This document shows, one piece after another, positions 19,865 to 41,536 of a stretch of 53,382 bases of DNA (positions within the stretch are counted from its first letter, which is position 1; the number at the start of each line of letters is the position of its first letter). The notes beneath the pieces were generated by a model. The model had not been told where the DNA came from, did no database searches, and saw only the letters and a program-made list of their open reading frames with translations. The DNA is from a virus, in IMG/VR virus record IMGVR_UViG_3300042731_004906, positions 1-53,382 of that record, one strand, 5' to 3'. The position numbers and the translations under genes are program-made.

Positions 19865-20075
19865 ATATCCCAACCTCTACCACCTGCCCGGCCTCTTTGA
19901 CGATGACCGCATCTCTGGTCAGTTGCAGCGCATTGCCGAAACCAACCTGCACTAACTCGCTTCTCTCGACCAGATGCAAGACGGTCGCCTTTGGCAAACT
20001 CAGCAACCGGGCTACCTGGTCAACGGTCGTGTGGCCCTGGGCGACGGCTACGGCGATGCGTTGCTTTGTGGTCAT
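19848..20075 (-). CDS. Helix-turn-helix protein
   Basis: 75 residues from ATG 20075, which overlaps the stop of the DUF5131 gene. Pattern TTKQRIAVAVAQGHTTVDQVARLLSLPKATVLHLVE is a clear HTH, with a beta C-terminal tail. Probably a small DNA-binding regulator or an adaptor for the overlapping HNH. Confidence 0.65.
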   Translation of the reverse strand: MTTKQRIAVAVAQGHTTVDQVARLLSLPKATVLHLVERSELVQVGFGNALQLTRDAVIVKEAGQVVEVGIYDSQS

Positions 20076-20776
20076 CTTGGGAATTCGTCCCACGTTCGAC
20101 CGTCCAAGATACGTCCGCCCCAAACGCCATCAACTTTACGATTGCCGCCGTGCTGTTTGTGAAAATAGGCAATATCATACCTCTGACAATCATCCCTGAC
20201 TTGCCTAAACCAGTCAAGATCAGCCGGGCGATAGTTTGGGCCGCTCTCGCCGCCTGAAATTATCCAGTCAATAACAGGACTGTAAGGATAAAAGTCAACC
20301 GGTCCAAGTGCCGGCTCGTAACTGACAAATTTAACGGTCGCAGGAATCTCGTCAAGGGATTCGAGCCGCCATAAATAATCTTTTGCCTCTATGCTGACAC
20401 CTAACCAGACATTGGGCCAGCCGTTGCCCCAATCATCCGGCATACAATATCTGGCCCATTCCGGTCTTTTGGTCAAAATCTGGTAGGTTAAATGGGGAGT
20501 CTGCCTGATAATGTCCCAGGCTTCATCTCGCCACGGGTCGGCCTCTTCGATGAAGAAATCTGACCAGGAACAGGTAAAAACTTTGGCCGACTTTTGCCAA
20601 GATAACGGCTTTCCGAATGTGGCCCGGCTTGATTTAACTATCGTTGCCGGGTCTTGTCCGTATCGTTTTTTGTCCCGATACATATAGCAATTTTTGCAGC
20701 CGGGGCTAACTTTCTGGCAACCTTGCCAGGGATTCCAGGTATGATTCGTCCATTCTATATTGCTATTTTTGCCCAT
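20072..20776 (-). CDS. DUF5131 (phage Gp37/Gp68-like) protein
   Basis: 234 residues. The family signature is strong: IEWTNHTWNPWQGCQKVSPGCKNCYMYR at the N-terminus, with Cys residues spaced like a radical-SAM-type cluster. VFTCSWSDFF, TYQILTKRPEW, NVWLGVSIE, WIISGGESGP and FHKQHGG follow. Such proteins are common in phages, often in early regions. Their reaction is unknown, although a radical-SAM-like fold is suspected. Confidence 0.85.
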   Translation of the reverse strand: MGKNSNIEWTNHTWNPWQGCQKVSPGCKNCYMYRDKKRYGQDPATIVKSSRATFGKPLSWQKSAKVFTCSWSDFFIEEADPWRDEAWDIIRQTPHLTYQILTKRPEWARYCMPDDWGNGWPNVWLGVSIEAKDYLWRLESLDEIPATVKFVSYEPALGPVDFYPYSPVIDWIISGGESGPNYRPADLDWFRQVRDDCQRYDIAYFHKQHGGNRKVDGVWGGRILDGRTWDEFPR

Positions 20777-25693: not shown

Positions 25694-26443
25694 TTAGCCA
25701 ATATGCAGAACTGCAACCCTGGCCTTTTGGTAAATTGTTTCTTTCAAATTCTTGATACTCTTATCGACAGGTATGTAATACTCCGATCCAGAATGACCAG
25801 CAGGGCAAAGCCATTTTGCTTCTAACGTTTGTCTAATAATATCTTCCTCCCAAACTATAAAAGTAGGGCAATCGCAAAAAATGCACTTCATCTCAAAAGA
25901 ATCTATAGGTATAGTGTTCAACTTTCCTTCTTCGCAACGACTTTTTTCTTCTACAAATTGATCGGCATACTTAATAATTGCCCTTATAGTTGAATCCGTA
26001 TCCCAAACTGCATCGTGCAACCAAGACGATAGCGGTTGTTCCCTGTACGAAATAATCAAATCGAAATATTCATTGAAAGTCATCTTTTTATCAGGATCAT
26101 ATTTGGGATATTGCGGGGCTAACGTGTTGGCTATTACCCTAACGATAGACGACCATAAGTTTTTCAGGTTGGGAGTATATGATTGGGTTTTGCCTTGTGA
26201 TTTTGGTTTAGGTGTCTCACTGTGCAAGTCAGCTATCCAATCTGGAAGATTATTACTCTTTTCAAGATTGCAACTGCTGCAAGACCAAACCAAATTCAAG
26301 ATGGAATCAGTACCACCCCTTGACAACGGTATTAAGTGGTCACAATGACCGTTATCATCTACTTTGCCACAATGAAAACAAGTGGCATTATCTCGCCTTT
26401 TGACCAAGCTTCTCAGGCGACTCCAGCTAGTTTCCGTTGTCAT
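25694..26443 (-). CDS. HNH endonuclease
   Basis: 249 residues. N-terminal HNH domain: RDNATCFHCGKVDDNGHCDHLIPLSRGG and NLVWSCSSCNLEKSN, with paired Cys zinc ligands and an HCDHLIPLS active site. The long C-terminal region contains a second CxxC pair (CIFCDCP ... CPAGHSG). It overlaps the ribbon-helix-helix gene and has a plasmid-type regulatory context. It may be a homing or defence nuclease. Confidence 0.75.
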   Translation of the reverse strand: MTTETSWSRLRSLVKRRDNATCFHCGKVDDNGHCDHLIPLSRGGTDSILNLVWSCSSCNLEKSNNLPDWIADLHSETPKPKSQGKTQSYTPNLKNLWSSIVRVIANTLAPQYPKYDPDKKMTFNEYFDLIISYREQPLSSWLHDAVWDTDSTIRAIIKYADQFVEEKSRCEEGKLNTIPIDSFEMKCIFCDCPTFIVWEEDIIRQTLEAKWLCPAGHSGSEYYIPVDKSIKNLKETIYQKARVAVLHIG

Positions 26444-31038: not shown

Positions 31039-33564
31039 TTAGTATGATGAAAAGCTGTCGCGCCAGAGCATATAGGCGGTAATGGTAGGCGCACCAGCTA
31101 CATTAACAAATGAGGTTACGTCGTTGTTATCGGGTAGAAGCGCCCACGTTCCAAAATCTGAATTTGCCAATATAGCATCTGGACGTGAACCAAAAAAGTC
31201 AGAAATAATACTTTGTTCTTTAGGTGACAAATCAATTACTAATGTTTCACCGTCAAGTAATGAGTAATTGAATAAAAGTTCTTTACCGGTACGCAAAGAA
31301 CGCAAATTATATATTGTTGCTGTAGTACCACCGGAGCGATTGAAAAAGACTTTAGGATATACTATCGTTCCGTCATTGTCTATTGATGTTAGTCCTCCAA
31401 AGTAAGCTGTTCCAGTGGTAGTATATCCAATAAACAAATCAAAAAGTTTGTTATTTGTTGGATCGCTTCGCCCGATTTGTATAGCATATACAATTGGCGA
31501 TCCCGGCAAATCTATATCTAAACTTGACCAGGTGTACCCATTCCAAAAGGCTATTCTATCCGTTGTCGTGATGCCACCAGCGGTAGTAAAAAAACCACCG
31601 GCATATAATGTTCCATCTGGACCAATGGCTAATGAATAAACAGTATTATTCATTCCAGTACTGAGGGCTGACCAAAAACTTCCATTCCACGAAGCGACGC
31701 GAATTGCAGCCCCGCCACCAGCAGTAGAAAAATCCCCCCCTGCATATAATGTTCCGTCTGGGCCAATGGCTAATGTCTGGACACTACCATCCATTCCAGT
31801 GCCGAGGGCTGACCAGGAAGAGCCATCCCACGAAGCAACGCGATTTGCAGCCCCGCCACCGGCAGTAGTGAAATTACCTCCTGCATATAATGTTCCGTCT
31901 GGGTCAATGGCTAAGTCATTGACAGTACTATTCATTCCAGTGCTGAGGGCTGACCAGGAAGAGCCATCCCACGAAGCGATATAATTTGCAGCCCCGCCAC
32001 CGGCAGTAGTGAAATTACCTCCTGCATATAATGTTCCGTCTGGGCCAATGGCTAATGTCTGGACAACGTTATCCATTCCAGTGCCGAGGGCTGACCAGGA
32101 AGAGCCATCCCACGAAGCAACGCGATTTGCAGCCCCGCCACCGGCAGTAGTGAAATCCCCCCCCGCATATAATGTTCCGTCCGGGCCAATGGCTAATGCA
32201 AAGACAGCACTACTCATACCAGTGCCGAGGGCTGACCAACTTTCATCTTGTTTATGCCATCTAACTATATTGTCAGCATTGGCGATATTATCAAAATTTG
32301 TAAACTGTCCGCCTACATAGACATAGGTATCATCTTCGACGATTGCTCTAATATTTGTGTATGTACCGGCTGCATCTGGTGGTCCCAGGGGATTCCATTG
32401 TCCAGTGGAACGTAATCGGCCAGCAACATACCTAAACGTGGCGCTATCATTCGTATCCAGCACCGCCGCGCTCTCCCCCACTTCCAGCCAAAACGGGTTA
32501 GGCGCGGTCAACTGAATAGCGGCCCGCTGAGAAAACTTATTGAGTTTTAACCAGTTGCCATCGTCGATACTCCGGTCATCACAGTAGACAACCGGCATAT
32601 CTCCTTCAAGCCCGCCGCCATATCTAACCGCTATCTCTTTCTGGACTTTAGCGCCGTTAAAGCGGATTCGGGTCAGTTGCAGATCGTCGGCAAAGAAGGC
32701 TTCTTCCAACTCTTGCGTCTTCTCGTGAAGCTCTGATTCTGTATCAGCAATGAACTGTCCGATTATGGTAAACTCTCTCGGCTCTATCTTTTCGTTGTTT
32801 AGCTCACCACCGGGCAGGATTGCATAGCTATCAACTCCGAGGCGACGGGGTGCACTACCGGCTCCGACTACCCGTTCGACCTGGAATTTGTACTCCTCCC
32901 AAAAGTCAACGGACTTGCCACCGGCTTTACTCAGGGCGCTGCGCTGACTTATCGAGGCGTGTTCGCTGCCAAGCCATTCGCATCCGTCCTGAGTGCCGTC
33001 GATGTAGGTTGTCCAATATGCAAGCGGCTCGACCTGCACTCCGTCCAGATAAAACGTACCAGGTTGCGCTGCGGTAATTTCAAGCGTCGTCCGTCCGTTG
33101 GCTTGCGCTGCCGCAAAGGGCGCGCCGTACAATGACCAGCTATCATCTATCTTCTCGACGAACTTGAGCCTCTTGGTTGCGCTGCCGATAGTTACCAGGA
33201 GATTGGTATTGCCCCGCACTCTGGCCGTGACAAAATGCTCGACATTGGTCAAGGCGGAGGTGGTCAGGCTTACGCCGTCGCCAATGGCAGGCGCGGCCAC
33301 CTGGTAGGAATAGAGGCCGTATTTTTGATAAGTCGTTACTCTGGTCGTAGTAGCGCCGGAAACGTCCGAGAAATTAGCGGTCGTTTCCGCCGATGGATTC
33401 AGAACGTAATTGCTTGAGGCCACCGGCGTTATGATTCGCCATTTGTTATCCACGGTTGGTACCCCTGTCTTGAAGATTACAGGCAGGTAAATCTTCTCTT
33501 GCGCCTGGGAGTAGCCCGGCCATAAGATGATTACCAGACATATTAAAGCTAGTAGTTTTTTCAT
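31039..33564 (-). CDS. Distal tail (Dit) protein with signal peptide and inserted beta-propeller
   Basis: 841 residues. A typical signal peptide (two Lys, hydrophobic core, then SQAQ) comes first and is followed by KIYLPVIFK. Residues about 60-185 are beta-rich. Dit-like segments are at about 205-365 (QFIADTESELHEKTQELEEAFFADDLQLTRIRFNG) and at the C-terminus (NLRSLRTGKELLFNYSLLDGETLVIDL). Between them a beta-propeller of about six near-identical 47-residue blades (SWSALGTGM ... LAIGPDGTLYAGG) is inserted. A signal peptide on a phage tail component is odd, as tails are normally assembled in the cytoplasm. Confidence 0.75.
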   Translation of the reverse strand: MKKLLALICLVIILWPGYSQAQEKIYLPVIFKTGVPTVDNKWRIITPVASSNYVLNPSAETTANFSDVSGATTTRVTTYQKYGLYSYQVAAPAIGDGVSLTTSALTNVEHFVTARVRGNTNLLVTIGSATKRLKFVEKIDDSWSLYGAPFAAAQANGRTTLEITAAQPGTFYLDGVQVEPLAYWTTYIDGTQDGCEWLGSEHASISQRSALSKAGGKSVDFWEEYKFQVERVVGAGSAPRRLGVDSYAILPGGELNNEKIEPREFTIIGQFIADTESELHEKTQELEEAFFADDLQLTRIRFNGAKVQKEIAVRYGGGLEGDMPVVYCDDRSIDDGNWLKLNKFSQRAAIQLTAPNPFWLEVGESAAVLDTNDSATFRYVAGRLRSTGQWNPLGPPDAAGTYTNIRAIVEDDTYVYVGGQFTNFDNIANADNIVRWHKQDESWSALGTGMSSAVFALAIGPDGTLYAGGDFTTAGGGAANRVASWDGSSWSALGTGMDNVVQTLAIGPDGTLYAGGNFTTAGGGAANYIASWDGSSWSALSTGMNSTVNDLAIDPDGTLYAGGNFTTAGGGAANRVASWDGSSWSALGTGMDGSVQTLAIGPDGTLYAGGDFSTAGGGAAIRVASWNGSFWSALSTGMNNTVYSLAIGPDGTLYAGGFFTTAGGITTTDRIAFWNGYTWSSLDIDLPGSPIVYAIQIGRSDPTNNKLFDLFIGYTTTGTAYFGGLTSIDNDGTIVYPKVFFNRSGGTTATIYNLRSLRTGKELLFNYSLLDGETLVIDLSPKEQSIISDFFGSRPDAILANSDFGTWALLPDNNDVTSFVNVAGAPTITAYMLWRDSFSSY
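31545..32245 (-). repeat. Tandem ~141-bp repeats encoding propeller blades
   Basis: About five near-identical units, each coding for a 47-residue blade, with a degenerate blade on each side. The DNA identity is high (for example GGGCCAATGGCTAATG recurs in most units), which suggests recent copy-number change or gene conversion. Confidence 0.8.
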
Positions 33565-36500: not shown

Positions 36501-36942
36501 CATCTTTGCCGATACCCAATTGACCGCCCAGCTCACCGATAGCAGCTAATTCCTCGAAGGTCAAGGGGACTGTTTTTGTCAGATCAACAAAGCCAGCGCG
36601 CAACTCCTTGCCAGCTTCGTTCAATTCACCGATACCGGAAGTCAAGCCGTCTGTTGTTTTGATGACCCCGGCAAATGCATCTTCAAACGATATGGCCGTG
36701 GTAGTCGAGACAGTAGCCAGCGCGCCCACGCCAGCGGCCAGCGCGCCCACACCGGCGACGGCTACGCCTGCGGCAAGTTTGGCGGTACTGCCTAATGCGC
36801 TGCCGAGCTTGCCGAACATTCCGCCGGCTTTGTCGGCGGACTTACCTAAGCCAAGTTGGGCTTTGTCGGCTTTGGAGAGATCGCGGAGATATGAGTTAAG
36901 GTTGCGTGCTAAAAATTCTACTCCTACTGGTGTTAATGCCAC
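33598..36942 (-). CDS. Tail tape measure protein
   Basis: 1114 residues, by far the longest protein. N-terminal Gly/Ala-rich segment (GVAVAGVGALAAGVGALATVSTTTAISFEDAFAGVIKTTDGL) typical of tape measure proteins. Coiled coil around 310-380, several hydrophobic segments around 640-730 (IIGLVAAVSAVSQAIVGLAAQIV), and the SPSTVFYDFGADLIQGLIDGI motif seen in tape measure C-terminal halves. It sets tail length and enters the host membrane at infection. Its start abuts the plus-strand promoter at 36943. Confidence 0.92.
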   Translation of the reverse strand: MALTPVGVEFLARNLNSYLRDLSKADKAQLGLGKSADKAGGMFGKLGSALGSTAKLAAGVAVAGVGALAAGVGALATVSTTTAISFEDAFAGVIKTTDGLTSGIGELNEAGKELRAGFVDLTKTVPLTFEELAAIGELGGQLGIGKDALLEFTETVAALGVSTNLSTEEAATGLARISNIFNISADDMGMNIEQLGSTIVALGNNFATTERDILAFGERLAGAGKIAGLTQADVLAIGTAMSSVGVEAEAGGTATQKVLLAINNAVAGAATGFVDYTDEIDKNVDKLTKLNAESARLEAQFPGLQAELLAQEQAFIAAGGSAEEFGRQLGDKTRQKAFETAQAIQELQAETDLLRQQHGQPIDSNLLATFAATSNMTVEDFKAAWEKDASGAFLAFVEGLGAQGDDAVNTLAELGLEDQRLIRSFLSLAGAGDLLERTLQTANGAFEENTALANEAAQRYATTKSQIQLFKNTLRALADTIGTRLLPFVNQLISLGISFASDFAGPLTDALDNQVVPALENAIAFVSSWIEAFRSGATDFQAVIEMIVDTINNAWPQIEAQLTTWGNQFWDWTVTALVDGPGKMAELTGFVGQKIRDYAPELIEAHSDWAAKFWEWTNTAVDMATQALIVVVAEIIRWAGSPETQAGLKDAGFAIGQFLGEQIGNFGDNGPEMAKVLGKIIIGLVAAVSAVSQAIVGLAAQIVAGIVSGLLDEIGIQVEPATISELTSVLNGIGENMKTIAKVVGTNIIDGIKNGIKQAQQDLENAITESANALISSFKEALGISSPSTVFYDFGADLIQGLIDGIGSLASKAVEAVTGVFSSLFGGGEEESTGPEFDTADPLAAFESISAGLLPVQEQWTAFVQSILDFVEITLPLLQDAFTLTYDLISEKLLLLKDTGIIPLDTALIDIYVLTLPTLQTTATDAINAIMTLVNQLTAAVHALGSAFTAVGEAASRAAEKIVDDMEDAADAIDDLIEIVMDAEEAFRKMAEAAKEAARAAQDAGSASGAQTGIGFSKGIGFMRGIGLQNGLGLGYKIPGQGRGDTFGPMYLEPGEELLVTPRGMTIDSLVMDRLAGMLKGGGDRNNTFNMTVNTLASPQSVIQQYQVAKALIG

Positions 36943-36971
36943 TTGACAAAATCCTTAAACTAAGATACAAT
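36943..36971 (+). promoter_or_regulatory. Promoter of module A
   Basis: TTGACA 36943-36948, 17-nt spacer, TACAAT 36966-36971. It begins at the first base after the tape measure start codon. The predicted RNA start (about 36978) coincides with the 5' arm of the leader helix. Confidence 0.78.
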
Positions 36972-36978
36972 AATTCTT

Positions 36979-37092
36979 GCCAGACAGTTGACTGAATAGA
37001 ATGGTTGATATAAAATTACAAATACTCTCCTCTGCTTTGGTCAATTGTCTGGCGACAAAGGCCATTCCAAAAGCGGAGGAGTTTTTTATTGC
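36979..37092 (+). ncRNA. Structured 5' leader of module A
   Basis: Helix 1: GCCAGACAGTTGAC (36979-36992) with GTCAATTGTCTGGC (37040-37053), all pairs or G-U. Helix 2: CTCCTCTGCTTTGG (37027-37040) with CCAAAAGCGGAGGAG (37067-37081), which crosses helix 1 and is followed by TTTTTT, as in an attenuator. The 17-nt segment TTGTCTGGCGACAAAGG (37045-37061) matches the module B leader at 13 positions. A pseudoknot or terminator/antiterminator switch is inferred. Confidence 0.65.
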
Positions 37093-37104
37093 AAGGAGAT
37101 AGCT

Positions 37105-37722
37105 ATGAGCAATATCGTTAAAGCAAAGGTCAAGGTAAGGGGCACTCGCCCATTTTGGCAACATCGTTTTGGCCCGGAAGCATTGCCACTCGAAAAGAAG
37201 GAAAAGACGGGCGTCGCCGGCAACAACCCCGAAGAATGGAGACAGACGGCAATGGTCAATAAAGACGGACAGCTTTTCTTTGAAGGTACTTACATTTTTG
37301 GTTCGCTGCGTGAGGCTGCAAAGTACACGAAGCGAGGCCGGGCATCCCTGCAAAAGCCGGTTGCCGCTACGCTTCAAATCTTGGAAGATAGAATCCTGCT
37401 TGATCGCTTTTTCCCCGGCTTTCCCAACGGTCACAAATTCGACATCGCTACCGTTGAAGAGCTGCCACGCGACCAGGAAGAATTGGTCTATTTGGACGTG
37501 AGAGGCGTCGTGAATCCATCGACGCGAGGCCGGAACGTGCGCTATCGGGTCGCTGCTTCTCCTGGTTGGCAAACCGAGTTTACCATTATGTTTGATAAGA
37601 CCATTGTCAGCCGGAATGAAATGGAAGCTATCTTGATTGACGCCGGGCGACTGGTTGGCATCGGCAATGGTCGGACTATCGGAATGGGCCGGTTTGAGGT
37701 TGAACAGTTCGAGTGCGAGTGA
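37105..37722 (+). CDS. RAMP-like protein A, paralogue of the gene at 40026
   Basis: 205 residues from ATG 37105 (AAGGAGAT, five bases upstream); the open frame extends upstream only through the leader. N-terminal beta strand KAKVKVRGTRPFWQHRF. A hydrophobic-alanine helix follows DGQLFFEGTYIFGSLREAAKY. C-terminal half: LVYLDVRGVV..., then AASPGWQTEFTIMFD and, at 185-195, GIGNGRTIGMG. That segment fits the RAMP glycine-rich loop GhGxxxxxGhG exactly, followed by RFEVEQFE. RAMP proteins of CRISPR complexes bind RNA. There is no cas gene nearby, so Cas function is not implied. It is followed by the 5-nt periodic tract and HNH. Confidence 0.7.
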   Translation: MSNIVKAKVKVRGTRPFWQHRFGPEALPLEKKEKTGVAGNNPEEWRQTAMVNKDGQLFFEGTYIFGSLREAAKYTKRGRASLQKPVAATLQILEDRILLDRFFPGFPNGHKFDIATVEELPRDQEELVYLDVRGVVNPSTRGRNVRYRVAASPGWQTEFTIMFDKTIVSRNEMEAILIDAGRLVGIGNGRTIGMGRFEVEQFECE

Positions 37723-37730
37723 TATTACGG

Positions 37731-38026
37731 GGTCCGGTACAGTAGGGCGCAGCGGGGTAAGGTGTGGTAGAGTTTGGTACAGCGAGTTACGGTCCAGCTT
37801 GGCAAGCCATAGCAAGGAAAACAAATCTAATTTACGCGATATAGTATAACGCGGTCGAGTCGGGTTTTGTCCGGCAAGGATATGTCGAGTCAGGTTAGGC
37901 TGAGTCGGGTTAGGTCTCGTAAAGCGATGCAAGAAAAACAAACTAAACCACCACGAGGCGTAGTAGGGAACGGTAAGGTGGGGTATGGCTCGCTTGTGTT
38001 CGGTCGAGTTAAGCAAAGCAAGGGAT
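37731..38026 (+). repeat. 5-nt periodic RGYNN tract A1 (between RAMP-like A and HNH A)
   Basis: Three runs: 37731-37819 (about 18 units such as GGTCC, GGTAC, AGTAG), 37851-37935 (about 17, register NNRGY) and 37957-38026 (14). Two A/C-rich breaks sharing AAAACAAA and CTAA-like words separate them (37820-37850 and 37936-37956). Consensus is R-G-Y-N-N. The last run ends four bases before the HNH ATG and supplies its ribosome site (AGGGA). Noncoding, because the period is not three. Confidence 0.75.
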
Positions 38027-38029
38027 TTA

Positions 38030-38338
38030 ATGCCAAAATCAAGACAGCCACAAGCAATATGGCAAGCCACCCGCCAAAGAGTTTGGCTTAGGGACAAGGG
38101 CCGTTGCCAGGGACCATACTGCAAAGATAAGCCTGAATGGTCCCTATCTCTGAAAGAGTGCCATATTGACCATATTCGCTCTGGCAAGTTGGCTACAAAC
38201 AAATCGAGTAACCTCCGTGTTTTATGCCGTCGCTGCCATACCCTTAGAGCCGACAACAGGCATCGGGGTATGATAGCTTCTGCCCTACGTGCTAACATAA
38301 TTCCTGCCAATTGGCGTGAATTAGTCTGGGATGACTGA
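38030..38338 (+). CDS. HNH endonuclease A
   Basis: 102 residues from ATG 38030; AAGGGA stands just upstream, inside the RGYNN tract. Metal and zinc ligands: C26, C31 (CQGPYC), the His-Asp-His motif at about 45-48 (CHIDHI), then C66/C69/H70 (LCRRCH), an HNH nuclease fold. It is unusually short and has no other domain. It lies between two RGYNN tracts. A paralogous position holds the HNH at 40859, though the two sequences differ clearly. Possibly the effector or a homing nuclease of module A. Confidence 0.72.
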   Translation: MPKSRQPQAIWQATRQRVWLRDKGRCQGPYCKDKPEWSLSLKECHIDHIRSGKLATNKSSNLRVLCRRCHTLRADNRHRGMIASALRANIIPANWRELVWDD

Positions 38339-38341
38339 CCC

Positions 38342-38421
38342 GGCTTGGCGCAGCAGAGCAAGGATCAGCACCGACCGGCGTGGTGGGGTGTGGTAGAGTG
38401 CAGTTTAGTATCGCAAGGATA
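38342..38421 (+). repeat. 5-nt periodic RGYNN tract A2
   Basis: 16 consecutive units (for example GGCTT, GGCGC, AGCAG, AGCAA; later GGTGG, GGTGT, GGTAG), in a constant register, directly after the HNH stop. It ends against the terminator stem. Confidence 0.75.
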
Positions 38422-38446
38422 AGGGCCAGCAATGGCCCTTTTTTCT
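38421..38446 (+). terminator. Rho-independent terminator of module A
   Basis: AAGGGCCA-GCAA-TGGCCCTT followed by TTTT. The stem starts at the end of the last RGYNN unit. Confidence 0.85.
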
Positions 38447-38488
38447 TTTGTGCGCCGGTCGGTGTCAGCGGCATTTTTTACCTTTTCT

Positions 38489-38514
38489 CTTCGCAAAAAC
38501 AACATTTTGCGAAG
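38489..38514. other. 10-bp perfect hairpin between modules
   Basis: CTTCGCAAAA/TTTTGCGAAG with loop ACAACA, upstream of the operon promoter at 38560. No T-tract. Could be an operator or a minus-strand stop signal. Confidence 0.5.
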
Positions 38515-38559
38515 TAAAATATCCAACCTTAAAAGTGTGCAAATTGGTATTGAGGACTA

Positions 38560-38588
38560 TTGACAAGTGAACACTTATCTGCTATAAT
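38560..38588 (+). promoter_or_regulatory. Promoter of the five-gene cassette
   Basis: TTGACA 38560-38565, 17-nt spacer, TATAAT 38583-38588, with CTATTGACA. Confidence 0.85.
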
Positions 38589-38621
38589 AAGTACATCAAA
38601 CAGTAAGAAAGGATTAAGAAA

Positions 38622-38840
38622 ATGACTAAGCAGTTCAGATTTGTAGGTTTTTCTCATAAAACTTGGGAACCCGGTTGTCGAAATCTTGGTATGGTGTGGG
38701 CTTCTTCCATCGATGAAGCTCGGCAAGCCTTCAAAGAGAACGGCTTAGCTCCTCCGGTTATAAAACGAAAATTAGGCGACGCTTCTTATCGTCTAGTGGA
38801 TGATAACGGTAATGTCACTAAAGAAATGATTTTTCGCTAA
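38622..38840 (+). CDS. Small cassette protein 1
   Basis: 72 residues, with GAAAGGATT before the ATG. QFRFVGFSHKTWEPGCRNLGMVWASSIDEARQAF has one Cys and a beta-beta-alpha look. No family recognised. First gene of the cassette after a consensus promoter. Confidence 0.65.
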   Translation: MTKQFRFVGFSHKTWEPGCRNLGMVWASSIDEARQAFKENGLAPPVIKRKLGDASYRLVDDNGNVTKEMIFR

Positions 38841-38891
38841 CCACCCACCCGCCCCGCCGGTGGCCTCGTAACCGGCAGAAAGGTACTTAAG

Positions 38892-39095
38892 ATGAAAGAT
38901 ATGGCATATTTTGTTAATCTGGTAGATGAGGCCAAGAAAACCAGAGATAATATTGGCGAGATGTTCAATGAAGCCTACTATGCCAAGCAAGATACTACTC
39001 GTTTACAACGGTTATTTGATAAAGCTACCGACCGCATCTTGCGCCGGATGGGTTATGTCTGGTTATTAGACCAGGCGAAAAATTTCAAAGAGTAA
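38892..39095 (+). CDS. Small cassette protein 2
   Basis: 67 residues, AGAAAGG before the ATG. Helical: KDMAYFVNLVDEAKKTRDNIGEMFNEAYYAKQDTTRLQRLFDKATDRILRRM. No family recognised. The spacer on its 5' side resembles the one before the next gene. Confidence 0.62.
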   Translation: MKDMAYFVNLVDEAKKTRDNIGEMFNEAYYAKQDTTRLQRLFDKATDRILRRMGYVWLLDQAKNFKE

Positions 39096-39140
39096 CCACT
39101 TAATGGCCCGCCCGGGGCCTATCCGGGCAAAGGTGCTAAA

Positions 39141-39302
39141 ATGTTTTTGTCGCAGTCAGATTTTTCTCACTTGTTCAATGTTCTCAGGTCGGTTTATCCC
39201 AGTGACCTATACTCTGACAATGATTTGCTCGACTTCCTGGCTACACTAGACCACGTTCCAGATAATGATGAATTGTTAGACTTGTTCGAGGAGGCAATGT
39301 AA
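39141..39302 (+). CDS. Small cassette protein 3
   Basis: 53 residues, AAAGGTGCT before the ATG. Acidic helical protein (FLSQSDFSHLFNVLRSVYPSD ... DNDELLDLFEEAM). Stop and next start share TAATG. Too short for standard ORF lists but well placed. No family recognised. Confidence 0.55.
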   Translation: MFLSQSDFSHLFNVLRSVYPSDLYSDNDLLDFLATLDHVPDNDELLDLFEEAM

Positions 39303-39502
39303 TGTCATCTTCTCTCAAATCCCAACACCGCATCCAGCTTGACCCCGGCAACTTCGCCCGGCTGCAAGACATCGCCAAGCGGCTTGGCTACGTTCACCGG
39401 GCCGGGCCAGGAGCCGGTAAGGTCGGGTCGGTAAGCACGTTGATGGACGCAATCGCAAACCAAGAATCCGTAGTATCGTTAGCCAAAGAAAGGAATGAAT
39501 GA
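39302..39502 (+). CDS. Small cassette protein 4, RHH-like
   Basis: 66 residues. LKSQHRIQLDPGNFARLQDIAKRLGYVHRAGPGAGKVGSVSTLMDAIANQE resembles a ribbon-helix-helix or HTH-type DNA-binding protein (strand, helix, GSVSTLMDAIA helix). It may regulate the cassette. Overlaps its neighbours at both ends. Confidence 0.6.
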   Translation: MSSSLKSQHRIQLDPGNFARLQDIAKRLGYVHRAGPGAGKVGSVSTLMDAIANQESVVSLAKERNE

Positions 39503-39759
39503 TGACCGATTATCAGATGATAAAGGAATACCTTGCAAGGCAAGTCAAGGAATGCGAACAGGCCATTATTAAATTTACAAATCGAGCAAACTTTGACGCA
39601 GGATTGGTGGCCGAGTTTCAAAGCTATGAACCCGATGTAGCTCTTATTTATGCTCAATGGCATCGCTTTCATCGAGATAAAGTCATCTATTTTCAAAAAA
39701 CGCTGGCGGTATTTCAAGATCGTTATTATGACTTTACCAAGTTTGACCCTAACCCTTAA
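39499..39759 (+). CDS. Small cassette protein 5
   Basis: 86 residues, ATGA coupling to the upstream stop; the second ATG (39502) is equally possible. Helical with Tyr and Phe (YQMIKEYLARQVKECEQAIIKFTNR; VIYFQKTLAVFQDRYYDF). No family recognised. Last gene before the terminator. Confidence 0.6.
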   Translation: MMTDYQMIKEYLARQVKECEQAIIKFTNRANFDAGLVAEFQSYEPDVALIYAQWHRFHRDKVIYFQKTLAVFQDRYYDFTKFDPNP

Positions 39760-39766
39760 CCACCTC

Positions 39767-39789
39767 GCCCCCGCAAGGGGGCTTTTTTT
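39767..39789 (+). terminator. Rho-independent terminator of the cassette
   Basis: GCCCCC-GCAA-GGGGGC followed by seven T. Confidence 0.88.
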
Positions 39790-39826
39790 ATTTCCCCTTT
39801 TTCGGCTTGACGTAATTTGCATCACT

Positions 39827-39855
39827 TTGACACCAATAATCATTTGTGATATAAT
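39827..39855 (+). promoter_or_regulatory. Promoter of module B
   Basis: TTGACA 39827-39832, 17-nt spacer, TATAAT 39850-39855. The RNA start near 39862 falls at the 5' base of the leader helix. Confidence 0.85.
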
Positions 39856-39862
39856 ATCCCTT

Positions 39863-39997
39863 GTCAGACTAAACGGTTTGCGAGGGCGCTTTTTTGTTGC
39901 CCACAATTAACCGAATAATTGCGGATAGACCGCCCGGCTTGAATAGGGTAAGCGCCCAAACCGTTAGTCTGACAACTAAGGTTTTTCGAGCCGGGCG
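39863..39997 (+). ncRNA. Structured 5' leader of module B
   Basis: Helix 1: 39863-39891 with 39950-39973 (GTCAGACTAA/TTAGTCTGAC, CGGTTT/AAACCG, GGGCGCTT/AAGCGCCC, small bulges). It encloses a hairpin CAATTA/TAATTG (39904-39921) and CGCCCGGCTTG (39931-39941), which pairs with CGAGCCGGGCG (39987-39997) to form a crossing helix. Architecture matches the module A leader, with a shared 17-nt segment (TAGTCTGACAACTAAGG). Switch function is inferred. Confidence 0.68.
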
Positions 39998-40025
39998 TTC
40001 TGTTTGCAAGAAAGAAAGGGTCACT

Positions 40026-40604
40026 GTGTATACCGTTGATGTATCTGTAGAAGGTGTTGCGCCATTGCTGCAACACAAGTTCCCGTTGCCGGACTTCTCC
40101 GATCTTGGCAAGGGAGGCAAACAGTCCACGGGAGAAAAGGATTATACTGAGGAATGGAAGGATTATCTGTACGTAGATTCCGATGGCGAAATCTTTCAAC
40201 CTGCCGTTCACTTTGACGGCTGTATGGTCAAGGCCGCCGTCAATTTCAAAATCCAGGGCAAGCGCGGCAAAACCTACAAAGATTTGTTCAAAGGTAACGT
40301 GTTCTGTTCGCCGGATGAAATTCTGCACGGTATTAAAGCTCCTGAAACTTTGGACAATGACGCCGACAAGCCGCTTTATTTGGATATTCGCCCCGTTGTT
40401 ATCAGCCGGGCCAGGGTAGTCAGGATTCGCCCCGCTTTTGCACCGGGCTGGAAACTGAGCTTTGAGATTGAAATCCTTGACGATCAAATTCCTGCCAACG
40501 TTGTTAATGAGGTTCTGTCCCTGGCCGGTAAGACCGTCGGTGTCGGTGATTTTCGCCCCCGTTTTGGCCGGTTTATGGTTACGAGGTTTGAGGTTCGGAA
40601 GTAG
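40026..40604 (+). CDS. RAMP-like protein B, paralogue of the gene at 37105
   Basis: 192 residues from GTG 40026 (AGAAAGG upstream); earlier in-frame TTG codons lie within the leader. Aligned with paralogue A: DVSVEGVAPLLQHKF, DGEIFQPAVHFDGCMVKAAV, PLYLDIRPVV, RARVVRIRPAFAPGWKLSFEIEI, and at 172-181 GVGDFRPRFG then RFMVTRFEV, the same glycine-rich C-terminal loop with one residue more than the RAMP consensus. Identity to A looks low, about a quarter to a third. The two are old duplicates kept in the same module layout. Confidence 0.7.
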   Translation: MYTVDVSVEGVAPLLQHKFPLPDFSDLGKGGKQSTGEKDYTEEWKDYLYVDSDGEIFQPAVHFDGCMVKAAVNFKIQGKRGKTYKDLFKGNVFCSPDEILHGIKAPETLDNDADKPLYLDIRPVVISRARVVRIRPAFAPGWKLSFEIEILDDQIPANVVNEVLSLAGKTVGVGDFRPRFGRFMVTRFEVRK

Positions 40605-40611
40605 ACTTTGT

Positions 40612-40845
40612 GGTAAGGGTGGGCAACGGTCAGGTAAGGTCCGGTAGTGGCAGGCTAGGAGAGGTTTAGTCCGGTATCGGTGTGACCTGGTGAGGGAAGG
40701 TCTGGTAAGGTAAAGTGAGGTAAGGGAAGTCTTGTGGTAAGGGAAAGGTGAAGTCGGATCGGGTGAGCTAAGATTGGGTGGGGTGTGGATTGGTGAGAAT
40801 TGGCGCGGGCAGGTGAGGCAGAATAAGGTAAGGTTATCCAAATAT
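40612..40845 (+). repeat. 5-nt periodic RGYNN tract B1
   Basis: About 46 units with occasional one-base slips in register, for example GGTAA, GGTAA, AGTGA, GGTAA, and later GGTGA, GCTAA, GATTG, GGTGG. Noncoding, between RAMP-like B and HNH B. Strongly purine/G-rich on the plus strand. Confidence 0.75.
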
Positions 40846-40858
40846 TCGGTTGTCTGTT

Positions 40859-41125
40859 ATGTCAAAGTATTTTACAGTAAACGAACTCCCTGGTTTGCAT
40901 TTTCTATGGTATTCTCGATTGCCGCTTGATGTCTGGTTGCCGCTCAAGCAATACGTCTATCAAAGAGACGGCGGTATCTGCCAGTATTGCGGTAATCAGT
41001 TTGCCTACGAAAAAACTCACTGTCATCACGTTTTAGAATTATGTGAAGGCGGTACAAACCACCCCACGAACCTCAAGACGCTTTGCATTGATTGCCATAA
41101 AACCAGACACCCGTTTATGAAGTAA
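40859..41125 (+). CDS. HNH endonuclease B
   Basis: 88 residues from ATG 40859 (a TTG lies three codons earlier). C41/C44 (CQYC), H56-H57 (HCHHVLELCEGG), N71 (HPTNLKTLC), C76/C79/H80 (CIDCH): a compact zinc-containing HNH nuclease. It sits between two RGYNN tracts at the same position as HNH A, although the sequences are clearly different. It ends just before tract B2. Confidence 0.72.
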   Translation: MSKYFTVNELPGLHFLWYSRLPLDVWLPLKQYVYQRDGGICQYCGNQFAYEKTHCHHVLELCEGGTNHPTNLKTLCIDCHKTRHPFMK

Positions 41126-41140
41126 TCTTGTGGCAGGGCC

Positions 41141-41220
41141 GTGGTACGGTGATGTGATGTGAGTTTTGGTGCGGCAAGGTGCGTCCGGGTGATGTAAGGA
41201 TTGGCTTGGTAAGGTAAGGG
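41141..41220 (+). repeat. 5-nt periodic RGYNN tract B2
   Basis: 16 units in constant register NNRGY (GTGGT, ACGGT, GATGT, GATGT ...), from the HNH stop to the terminator stem. Its length matches tract A2. Confidence 0.75.
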
Positions 41221-41243
41221 TAGATTAAGTTCTACCCTTTTTT
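41216..41243 (+). terminator. Rho-independent terminator of module B
   Basis: AAGGGTAGA-TTAAG-TTCTACCCTT followed by TTTT. It also overlaps the stop of the frameshifted tail chaperone extension on the other strand. Confidence 0.85.
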
Positions 41244-41536
41244 GTTTTTGGCATATTTGCATCGCTTACGTGCGCCTCGATTAGTAAACTTGCTTGATGA
41301 TAGGCAATCATTTCAGCTACAAATTCTCTTGGATATTCACCACGTCTTAACTTTAATAATTCATCTAAACCGGCTCCGCAATATATCGCTGCCCTAAATT
41401 GAGAGAATAATCCTAAGCTACCATTGTGACTTGTAATCCCTACTGGCTTTCCAGAGCGAAGCGGATATTCTTCAATTGCAATACCGTTTCTTTTAATCCC
41501 GAAAGCGAGATTTGGCCGCTGCCAAGTCCTCCTCGC
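41225..41536 (-). CDS. Tail assembly chaperone C-terminal extension in +1 (or -2) frame
   Basis: An open frame of about 104 codons with no standard start, beginning after a TAA at 41537-41539 and ending at TAA 41225-41227. It overlaps the end of the chaperone gene. Sequence: GITSHNGSLGLFSQFRAAIYCGAGLDELL, then RGEYPREFVAEMIAYHQASLLIEAHVSDA. The last part fits the second-domain signature of phage tail chaperones made by frameshifting (lambda G/GT-like). The shift would occur between 41536 and 41493, +1 or -2, not the usual -1. Slippery site unclear. Confidence 0.6.
   Translation of the reverse strand, partial: ARRTWQRPNLAFGIKRNGIAIEEYPLRSGKPVGITSHNGSLGLFSQFRAAIYCGAGLDELLKLRRGEYPREFVAEMIAYHQASLLIEAHVSDANMPKTKKGRT

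What the first reader, a model, noticed from the sequence alone, without database searches (positions are those of the whole stretch)
40612..41220. Independent RGYNN tracts in module B with the same period
40612-40845 has about 46 units with a few one-base slips, and 41141-41220 has 16 in one register. Tracts A2 and B2 both have about 16 units and both run into the terminator stem. Independent copies with different sequences but the same period and length indicate selection on spacing, not recent copying.
Basis: partly seen in the sequence, partly recalled or inferred. Interest (0 to 1): 0.85.

Follow-up and report, generated by a model that had tools for sequence, protein, structure and literature searches.

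The report
Twin VIPR guide-RNA loci in phage
The five-base repeats are the guide RNAs of two side-by-side VIPR systems in a phage, a recently published CRISPR-like way for viruses to recognise rival DNA; here each system also carries a small HNH (DNA-cutting type) nuclease gene inside the guide array.

Summary
The tracts are real and far beyond chance. They are guide-RNA (vrRNA) arrays of two VIPR loci, a RAMP-based RNA-guided DNA-recognition system published in 2026 (PMC13142463). Each module is a complete unit: sigma-70 promoter, structured leader, vipr gene (Cas7-like RAMP), GGY/NN pentamer array, HNH gene, another pentamer array running into the terminator. Profiles built on the two proteins hit only one solved structure, "SUSP1 Vipr protein" (36pp; E=7.7e-25 for B, 4.2e-11 for A). 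Of 80 viral vipr loci, 79 carry a period-5 array beside the gene, against 2 of 51 control loci at the edge of the threshold. Modules A and B belong to well-separated Vipr lineages, so they are not recent copies. In a close relative, the vipr (72% nt) and HNH (69% nt) genes align with the window's but the main array does not. Selection acts on period because GGY is the protein-binding scaffold and NN is the guide code. Less ordinary: two different HNH-associated VIPRs in one phage, with HNH embedded in the array. No DNA target was found.

The parts
36943..36971 (+). Promoter of module A (TTGACA-17-TACAAT)
   Evidence: 11 of 12 sigma-70 positions
36977..37055 (+). Structured 5' leader of module A (long hairpin)
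   Evidence: fold z = -3.5
37105..37722 (+). vipr A: RAMP/Cas7-like guide-RNA binding protein, 205 aa
   Evidence: phrog_4652 E=8.8e-11; profile hits PDB 36pp 'SUSP1 Vipr protein' E=4.2e-11; model matches Csm3-type subunits
37731..37815 (+). vrRNA A1a, 17 RGY/NN units
37853..37932 (+). vrRNA A1b, 16 units
37957..38021 (+). vrRNA A1c, 13 units; its GCAAGG end also lies where the ribosome-binding site of the HNH gene would be
   Evidence: sequence
38030..38338 (+). HNH accessory gene A (102 aa)
   Evidence: Pfam HNH E=1.2e-6; conserved beside vipr in relatives
38342..38421 (+). vrRNA A2, 15-16 units, running into the terminator
38421..38440 (+). Terminator of module A
39827..39855 (+). Promoter of module B (TTGACA-17-TATAAT)
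   Evidence: 12 of 12, TG before -10
39859..39982 (+). Structured 5' leader of module B (long inverted repeat)
   Evidence: fold z = -5.5
40026..40604 (+). vipr B: RAMP/Cas7-like guide-RNA binding protein, 192 aa
   Evidence: phrog_4652 E=1.6e-21; PDB 36pp E=7.7e-25 by profile and 2e-9 by single sequence
40608..40728 (+). vrRNA B1a: handle TTGTGGTAAGG, then about 20 GGY/NN units with one slip
40732..40836 (+). vrRNA B1b: handle TTGTGGTAAGG, then about 17-19 units
40859..41125 (+). HNH accessory gene B (88 aa)
   Evidence: Pfam HNH E=1.9e-9; IscB HNH the best NCBIfam match, below its cut-off
41128..41222 (+). vrRNA B2: handle TTGTGGCAGGG, then 16 units running into the terminator
41216..41239 (+). 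Terminator of module B

Best explanation
Modules A and B are two VIPR loci. Each is probably transcribed from its own promoter as one RNA. Its pentamer tracts are processed into vrRNAs of roughly 13-20 units. Vipr subunits coat the vrRNA, gripping each GGY/RGY core; the NN dinucleotides pair with double-stranded DNA, with one target base skipped between successive NN pairs. The complex then binds the DNA of rival mobile elements, and the HNH protein encoded inside the same array probably cuts or nicks it. Shown here: the anatomy, the protein family, the held core with variable NN, the vipr-array linkage in many phages, and the HNH linkage in two Vipr lineages. Taken from the 2026 paper on relatives: RNP formation, the 1-nt skip rule, silencing of targets. 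Inferred: processing of these arrays, cleavage by HNH, and the kind of target (none found).
For: Both proteins belong to phrog_4652, and their profiles hit only 'SUSP1 Vipr protein' among all PDB sequences. The AlphaFold model of A matches Csm3/Cas7-type backbone subunits. Relatives in Felixounavirus, phiHSIC and DSL-LC04 have period-5 arrays near the gene; phiSUSP1, the paper's model, is one of the records hit. 79 of 80 viral vipr loci have such arrays, against 2 of 51 control loci at the edge of the threshold. Units over the arrays found: G .95, G .92, C .52/T .45, then two near-uniform positions (the array finder selects RGY cores, so only the preference for GG over AG and the variable NN are informative). 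The close relative L071 keeps vipr, HNH and handle, but its main array does not align. HNH lies by or inside the array in six other viral contigs and beside vipr in eight bacterial genomes; hammerhead ribozymes lie in the L142 array, as the paper reports for some VIPR arrays.
Against: No DNA target reached significance: five vrRNA cores in viral contigs and three in 158 genomes of one class. Expression, processing and RNP formation were not testable. Module A uses RGY rather than strict GGY, and some units break the core. The HNH role rests on linkage and family only.
Confidence: 0.93

Rival explanations
1. The loci are VIPRs, but the HNH genes are passenger homing-type endonucleases that settled in a permissive non-coding array and do not work with Vipr.
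For: Small HNH genes are common phage passengers; PHROG matches are generic HNH. The window has another HNH-type gene elsewhere (25694-26443).
Against: HNH keeps its place just after vipr or within the array in two separate Vipr lineages and in phages and bacteria alike, with the HNH motif residues present; the paper names nucleases as vap genes of some types.
Confidence: 0.25
2. The tracts are a period-5 binding platform for a Vipr filament with a structural or regulatory role (autoregulation, RNA sponge), with no DNA target.
For: No target found.
Against: In SUSP1 the NN positions were shown to direct DNA recognition (PMC13142463); NN varies freely while the core is held.
Confidence: 0.06
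3. Low-complexity G-rich repeats formed by slippage, without function.
For: Simple period and G-rich composition.
Against: Tandem Repeats Finder does not report the arrays because units differ; NN is near-uniform; the arrays are tied to one protein family across phages.
Confidence: 0.01

Closest known systems
Type II VIPR of Escherichia phage SUSP1 (PMC13142463; PDB 36pp)
   Same: Homologous Vipr protein, phage location, several vrRNAs of GGY/NN units flanking the genes, one accessory gene
   Different: The paper gives type II vap genes as predicted DNA-binding proteins, here HNH; the SUSP1 tail is said to hold a pseudoknot, not looked for here; here a 5' handle (B) or GCAAGG-type last units (A), and vrRNAs on both sides of the accessory gene
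VIPR types with nuclease vap genes, and hammerhead-interspersed VIPR arrays (PMC13142463)
   Same: Module A's Vipr relatives include Marinithermofilum (L142), with HNH and seven Hammerhead_II ribozymes in its array
   Different: No hammerhead or other Rfam match in the window; this copy is in a phage, whereas the paper says types III and V, the only ones with predicted nucleases, are enriched in defence islands. The type number could not be assigned because the supplement is not readable here
Class 1 CRISPR Cas7/Csm3 backbone
   Same: RAMP fold, repeated subunits on a guide RNA
   Different: 6-nt rather than 5-nt period, contiguous spacer, CRISPR array, many cas genes
TIGR-Tas and IscB/omega-RNA
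   Same: Compact RNA-guided DNA systems of phages or mobile elements; HNH domain in IscB
   Different: Different guide proteins; no RAMP, no pentamer code (from general knowledge, not tested)

Membership tests
VIPR | Vipr protein (early-branching RAMP, about 20 kDa) | tested here: met
   phrog_4652; PDB 36pp E=7.7e-25 (B) and 4.2e-11 (A); Csm3-like fold of A. The early branching itself was not tested
VIPR | vrRNA of about 9-16 GGY/NN pentamer units beside vipr | tested here: met
   Four tracts, 13-17 units per vrRNA in A and B2, more in B1a; NN variable; A uses RGY
VIPR | Minimal locus: vipr plus one vap gene | tested here: met
   vipr and HNH are the only recognised genes between promoter and terminator in each module
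VIPR | vrRNA expressed and bound by Vipr | not testable with these tools
   Needs RNA sequencing or pull-down
VIPR | DNA target read by the 1-nt skip rule | tested here: inconclusive
   No significant target in viral contigs or 158 genomes; hosts and rivals of this phage are unknown, and no positive control was run
VIPR | 3' tail with pseudoknot (SUSP1 clade) | not tested
   No pseudoknot search was made on the window tails; the paper reports it for the SUSP1 clade
CRISPR-Cas class 1 | CRISPR array and multiple cas genes | tested here: not met
   Tandem Repeats Finder reports no array at the loci; no second RAMP or other cas-like gene recognised within a module
Hammerhead-interspersed VIPR array | Hammerhead ribozymes between vrRNAs | tested here: not met
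   No Rfam match in 36900-41300 even at E=1

The most novel reading that the evidence does not exclude
One phage carries two orthogonal, nuclease-armed VIPRs with separate core motifs (RGY and GGY) and different RNA handles, used as a target-destroying weapon between phages and not as host immunity; and the array end serves as the ribosome-binding site of the HNH gene, linking guide processing to nuclease synthesis.
Probability: 0.3. Interest if true: 0.65.

Novelty: new member of a known kind. Interest (0 to 1): 0.5.

Why it matters
VIPR was described only in 2026. These loci come from an uncultivated phage and show HNH-associated VIPRs in a virus, from two well-separated Vipr lineages side by side. 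That makes it testable whether VIPR can cut DNA as well as repress it, whether two systems in one genome stay separate, and how arrays without hammerheads are processed. The near relative L071 gives a natural comparison in which genes are conserved and guides are replaced.

Tried and rejected
Known RNA families: none in the window at gathering score, none in 36900-41300 at E=1. TRAP-like attenuation and Hfq or CsrA sponges were considered and dropped once the RAMP gene and the 2026 paper were found. Target search: 8-unit NN cores of A1a, A1b, A2, B1b and B2 in viral contigs gave 15, 29, 6, 4 and 36 hits, none extending beyond chance after correction (best corrected p 0.08). Several B2 hits match ten units in a row, but they fall in common [DE]LAKAR[DE][KN] helices of different genes. 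13-unit patterns of A1a, A2 and B2 with up to 3 mismatches: none in 158 genomes. All-against-all among fetched loci: no excess for the 1-nt skip apart from the B2 hits built into the search. Host: the terminase matches 1 of 400 genomes of the phylum of a Chloroflexales MAG, at 41%, so the host stays uncertain. The near-identical contig IMGVR_UViG_3300035130_000101 is 100% identical over the stretches read and adds nothing.

Full report
What was checked. The period-5 signal of the window is concentrated at four tracts, A1, A2, B1 and B2, all on the + strand and all beside or around two small HNH genes. A slip-tolerant parser gives 46 units with five 1-2 base slips for B1 and a long run in almost one register for B2; shuffles of the same bases score far lower. 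Sixteen units of A2 and of B2 run up to or into the stems of terminators at 38421-38440 and 41216-41239. Tandem Repeats Finder misses the tracts, because successive units differ.

What surrounds them. Each tract pair belongs to a module with its own sigma-70-like promoter (36943-36971; 39827-39855, a perfect 12/12), a strongly folded leader (z -3.5 and -5.5), a gene of about 200 codons, the tract, an HNH gene, a second tract and a terminator. The 200-codon genes are both phrog_4652, unknown function. Pfam gives a weak RAMP match for A, and five of the fourteen A-type proteins scanned match RAMPs at E 0.1 or better. The modules lie between the tape-measure gene and further genes on the opposite strand, the usual place of a moron (inference).

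What it is. phrog_4652 relatives in Felixounavirus phages, Listonella phage phiHSIC and Phage DSL-LC04 have period-5 arrays near the gene, the strongest such signal in each 8.5-kb stretch. A literature search then found the 2026 preprint on VIPR systems: a phage RAMP homologue, Vipr, binds vrRNAs of GGY/NN pentamers; the NN dinucleotides read double-stranded DNA with one base skipped between them. Phage SUSP1, a record hit, is its model. Profiles of the window's proteins hit one PDB sequence only, 'SUSP1 Vipr protein' (36pp), E=7.7e-25 and 4.2e-11; protein B alone gives 2e-9. The AlphaFold model of A (mean pLDDT 83) matches Csm3-type backbone subunits, E about 1e-8, TM about 0.5.

Generality. 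A profile scan of viral contigs returned 80 vipr loci, one of them the window's own phage. Period-5 arrays lie beside vipr in 79; two of 51 unrelated control loci barely pass the same threshold. Units of 214 arrays read G .95, G .92, C/T, N, N. That array finder requires RGY, so the purine-G-pyrimidine core is built in; the GG preference and the near-uniform NN are not.

Independent modules. The A and B proteins are about 32% identical. In a tree of 53 Viprs, A sits in a 100/100 clade with L129, L132, L136, L138 and L140, B with L071 (99/92), and the HNH label needs two changes. So the modules are not a recent duplication. Between-tract BLAST finds only short, chance-level matches; mean identity of A2 and B2 is 0.43 in phase and 0.22-0.31 out of phase. 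Against L071, vipr is 72.5% and HNH 68.9% identical in DNA; local alignment of the vipr region stops in the first units of the array, and that of the HNH region just past the gene. A forced global alignment of B2 with the second L071 array gives 63% over 90 bases, as a shared core and handle would.

Details of the arrays. In B, vrRNAs start with TTGTGG[TC]ANGG: three exact copies in the window, all at vrRNA starts, and five near-exact ones in L071. Thus B1 is two vrRNAs. Over the whole window the one-mismatch version of the motif is not above chance; it is the placing of the exact copies that counts. In A, vrRNAs end in GCAAGG-type units, and the last such unit before the HNH gene lies where its ribosome-binding site should be; the same is seen in L129, L132, L136 and L140 (read by eye). 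A uses RGY, with A at position 1 in a third of units. Related bacterial loci have vipr with HNH in Marinithermofilum, Paenibacillus, Bacillus, Pelotomaculum and others, and L142 has seven Hammerhead_II ribozymes in its array; the window has none. Among the nine bacterial loci, L143, L145, L149 and L150 do not pass the period-5 threshold, although L145 and L149 show GGY-like runs by eye; L150 is a partial match without HNH.

Function. From the paper, the likely action is sequence-specific DNA binding and repression of rival elements. The HNH genes suggest cutting. The paper says types III and V, the only ones with predicted nucleases, are enriched in host defence islands; here HNH-bearing loci are in a phage, and in six further viral contigs. 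Whether this departs from the paper's types cannot be told, because its main text does not mention HNH and the supplement was not readable.

Targets. None found, as set out under 'tried and rejected'. No positive control for the target search was run, so an empty result is weak.

Verdict. A well-supported new member of a known, very recent kind, with an uncommon arrangement: among the loci examined, with flanks of up to 3 kb, only this phage has two separate vipr genes (L111 and L135 show split or overlapping frames of one gene).

Noticed in passing
36977-37055 and 39859-39982: Both modules have a long, strongly folded leader between promoter and vipr (z -3.5 and -5.5); a regulatory or antitermination role is possible.
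   Followed up: partly
38560-39782: Between the modules a perfect sigma-70-like promoter precedes five small ORFs (53-86 aa) that end at a terminator; no PHROG match at E 0.001 for any. Candidate small early or counter-defence genes.
   Followed up: partly
L008:5080-5430: Felixounavirus vrRNA tails show candidate H-type pseudoknots, read by eye, whose loop-to-3' pairing changes in step between cassettes (GTCTCA/TGAGAC, AATCGG/TCGATT, TGGCAG/CTGCCA), as the VIPR paper reports for the SUSP1 clade.
   Followed up: partly
L007:4580-4900: phiHSIC has a period-5 array of a different type (GCAAN-like) downstream of its phrog_4652 gene, perhaps one of the related consensus motifs the paper mentions.
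   Followed up: no
31573-32238: 141-base tandem repeat (4.7 copies, 85% match) inside a tail-region ORF on the - strand.
   Followed up: no
20072-20776: ORF resembling radical SAM mobile pair protein A (NCBIfam E=5.2e-12, below cut-off).
   Followed up: no
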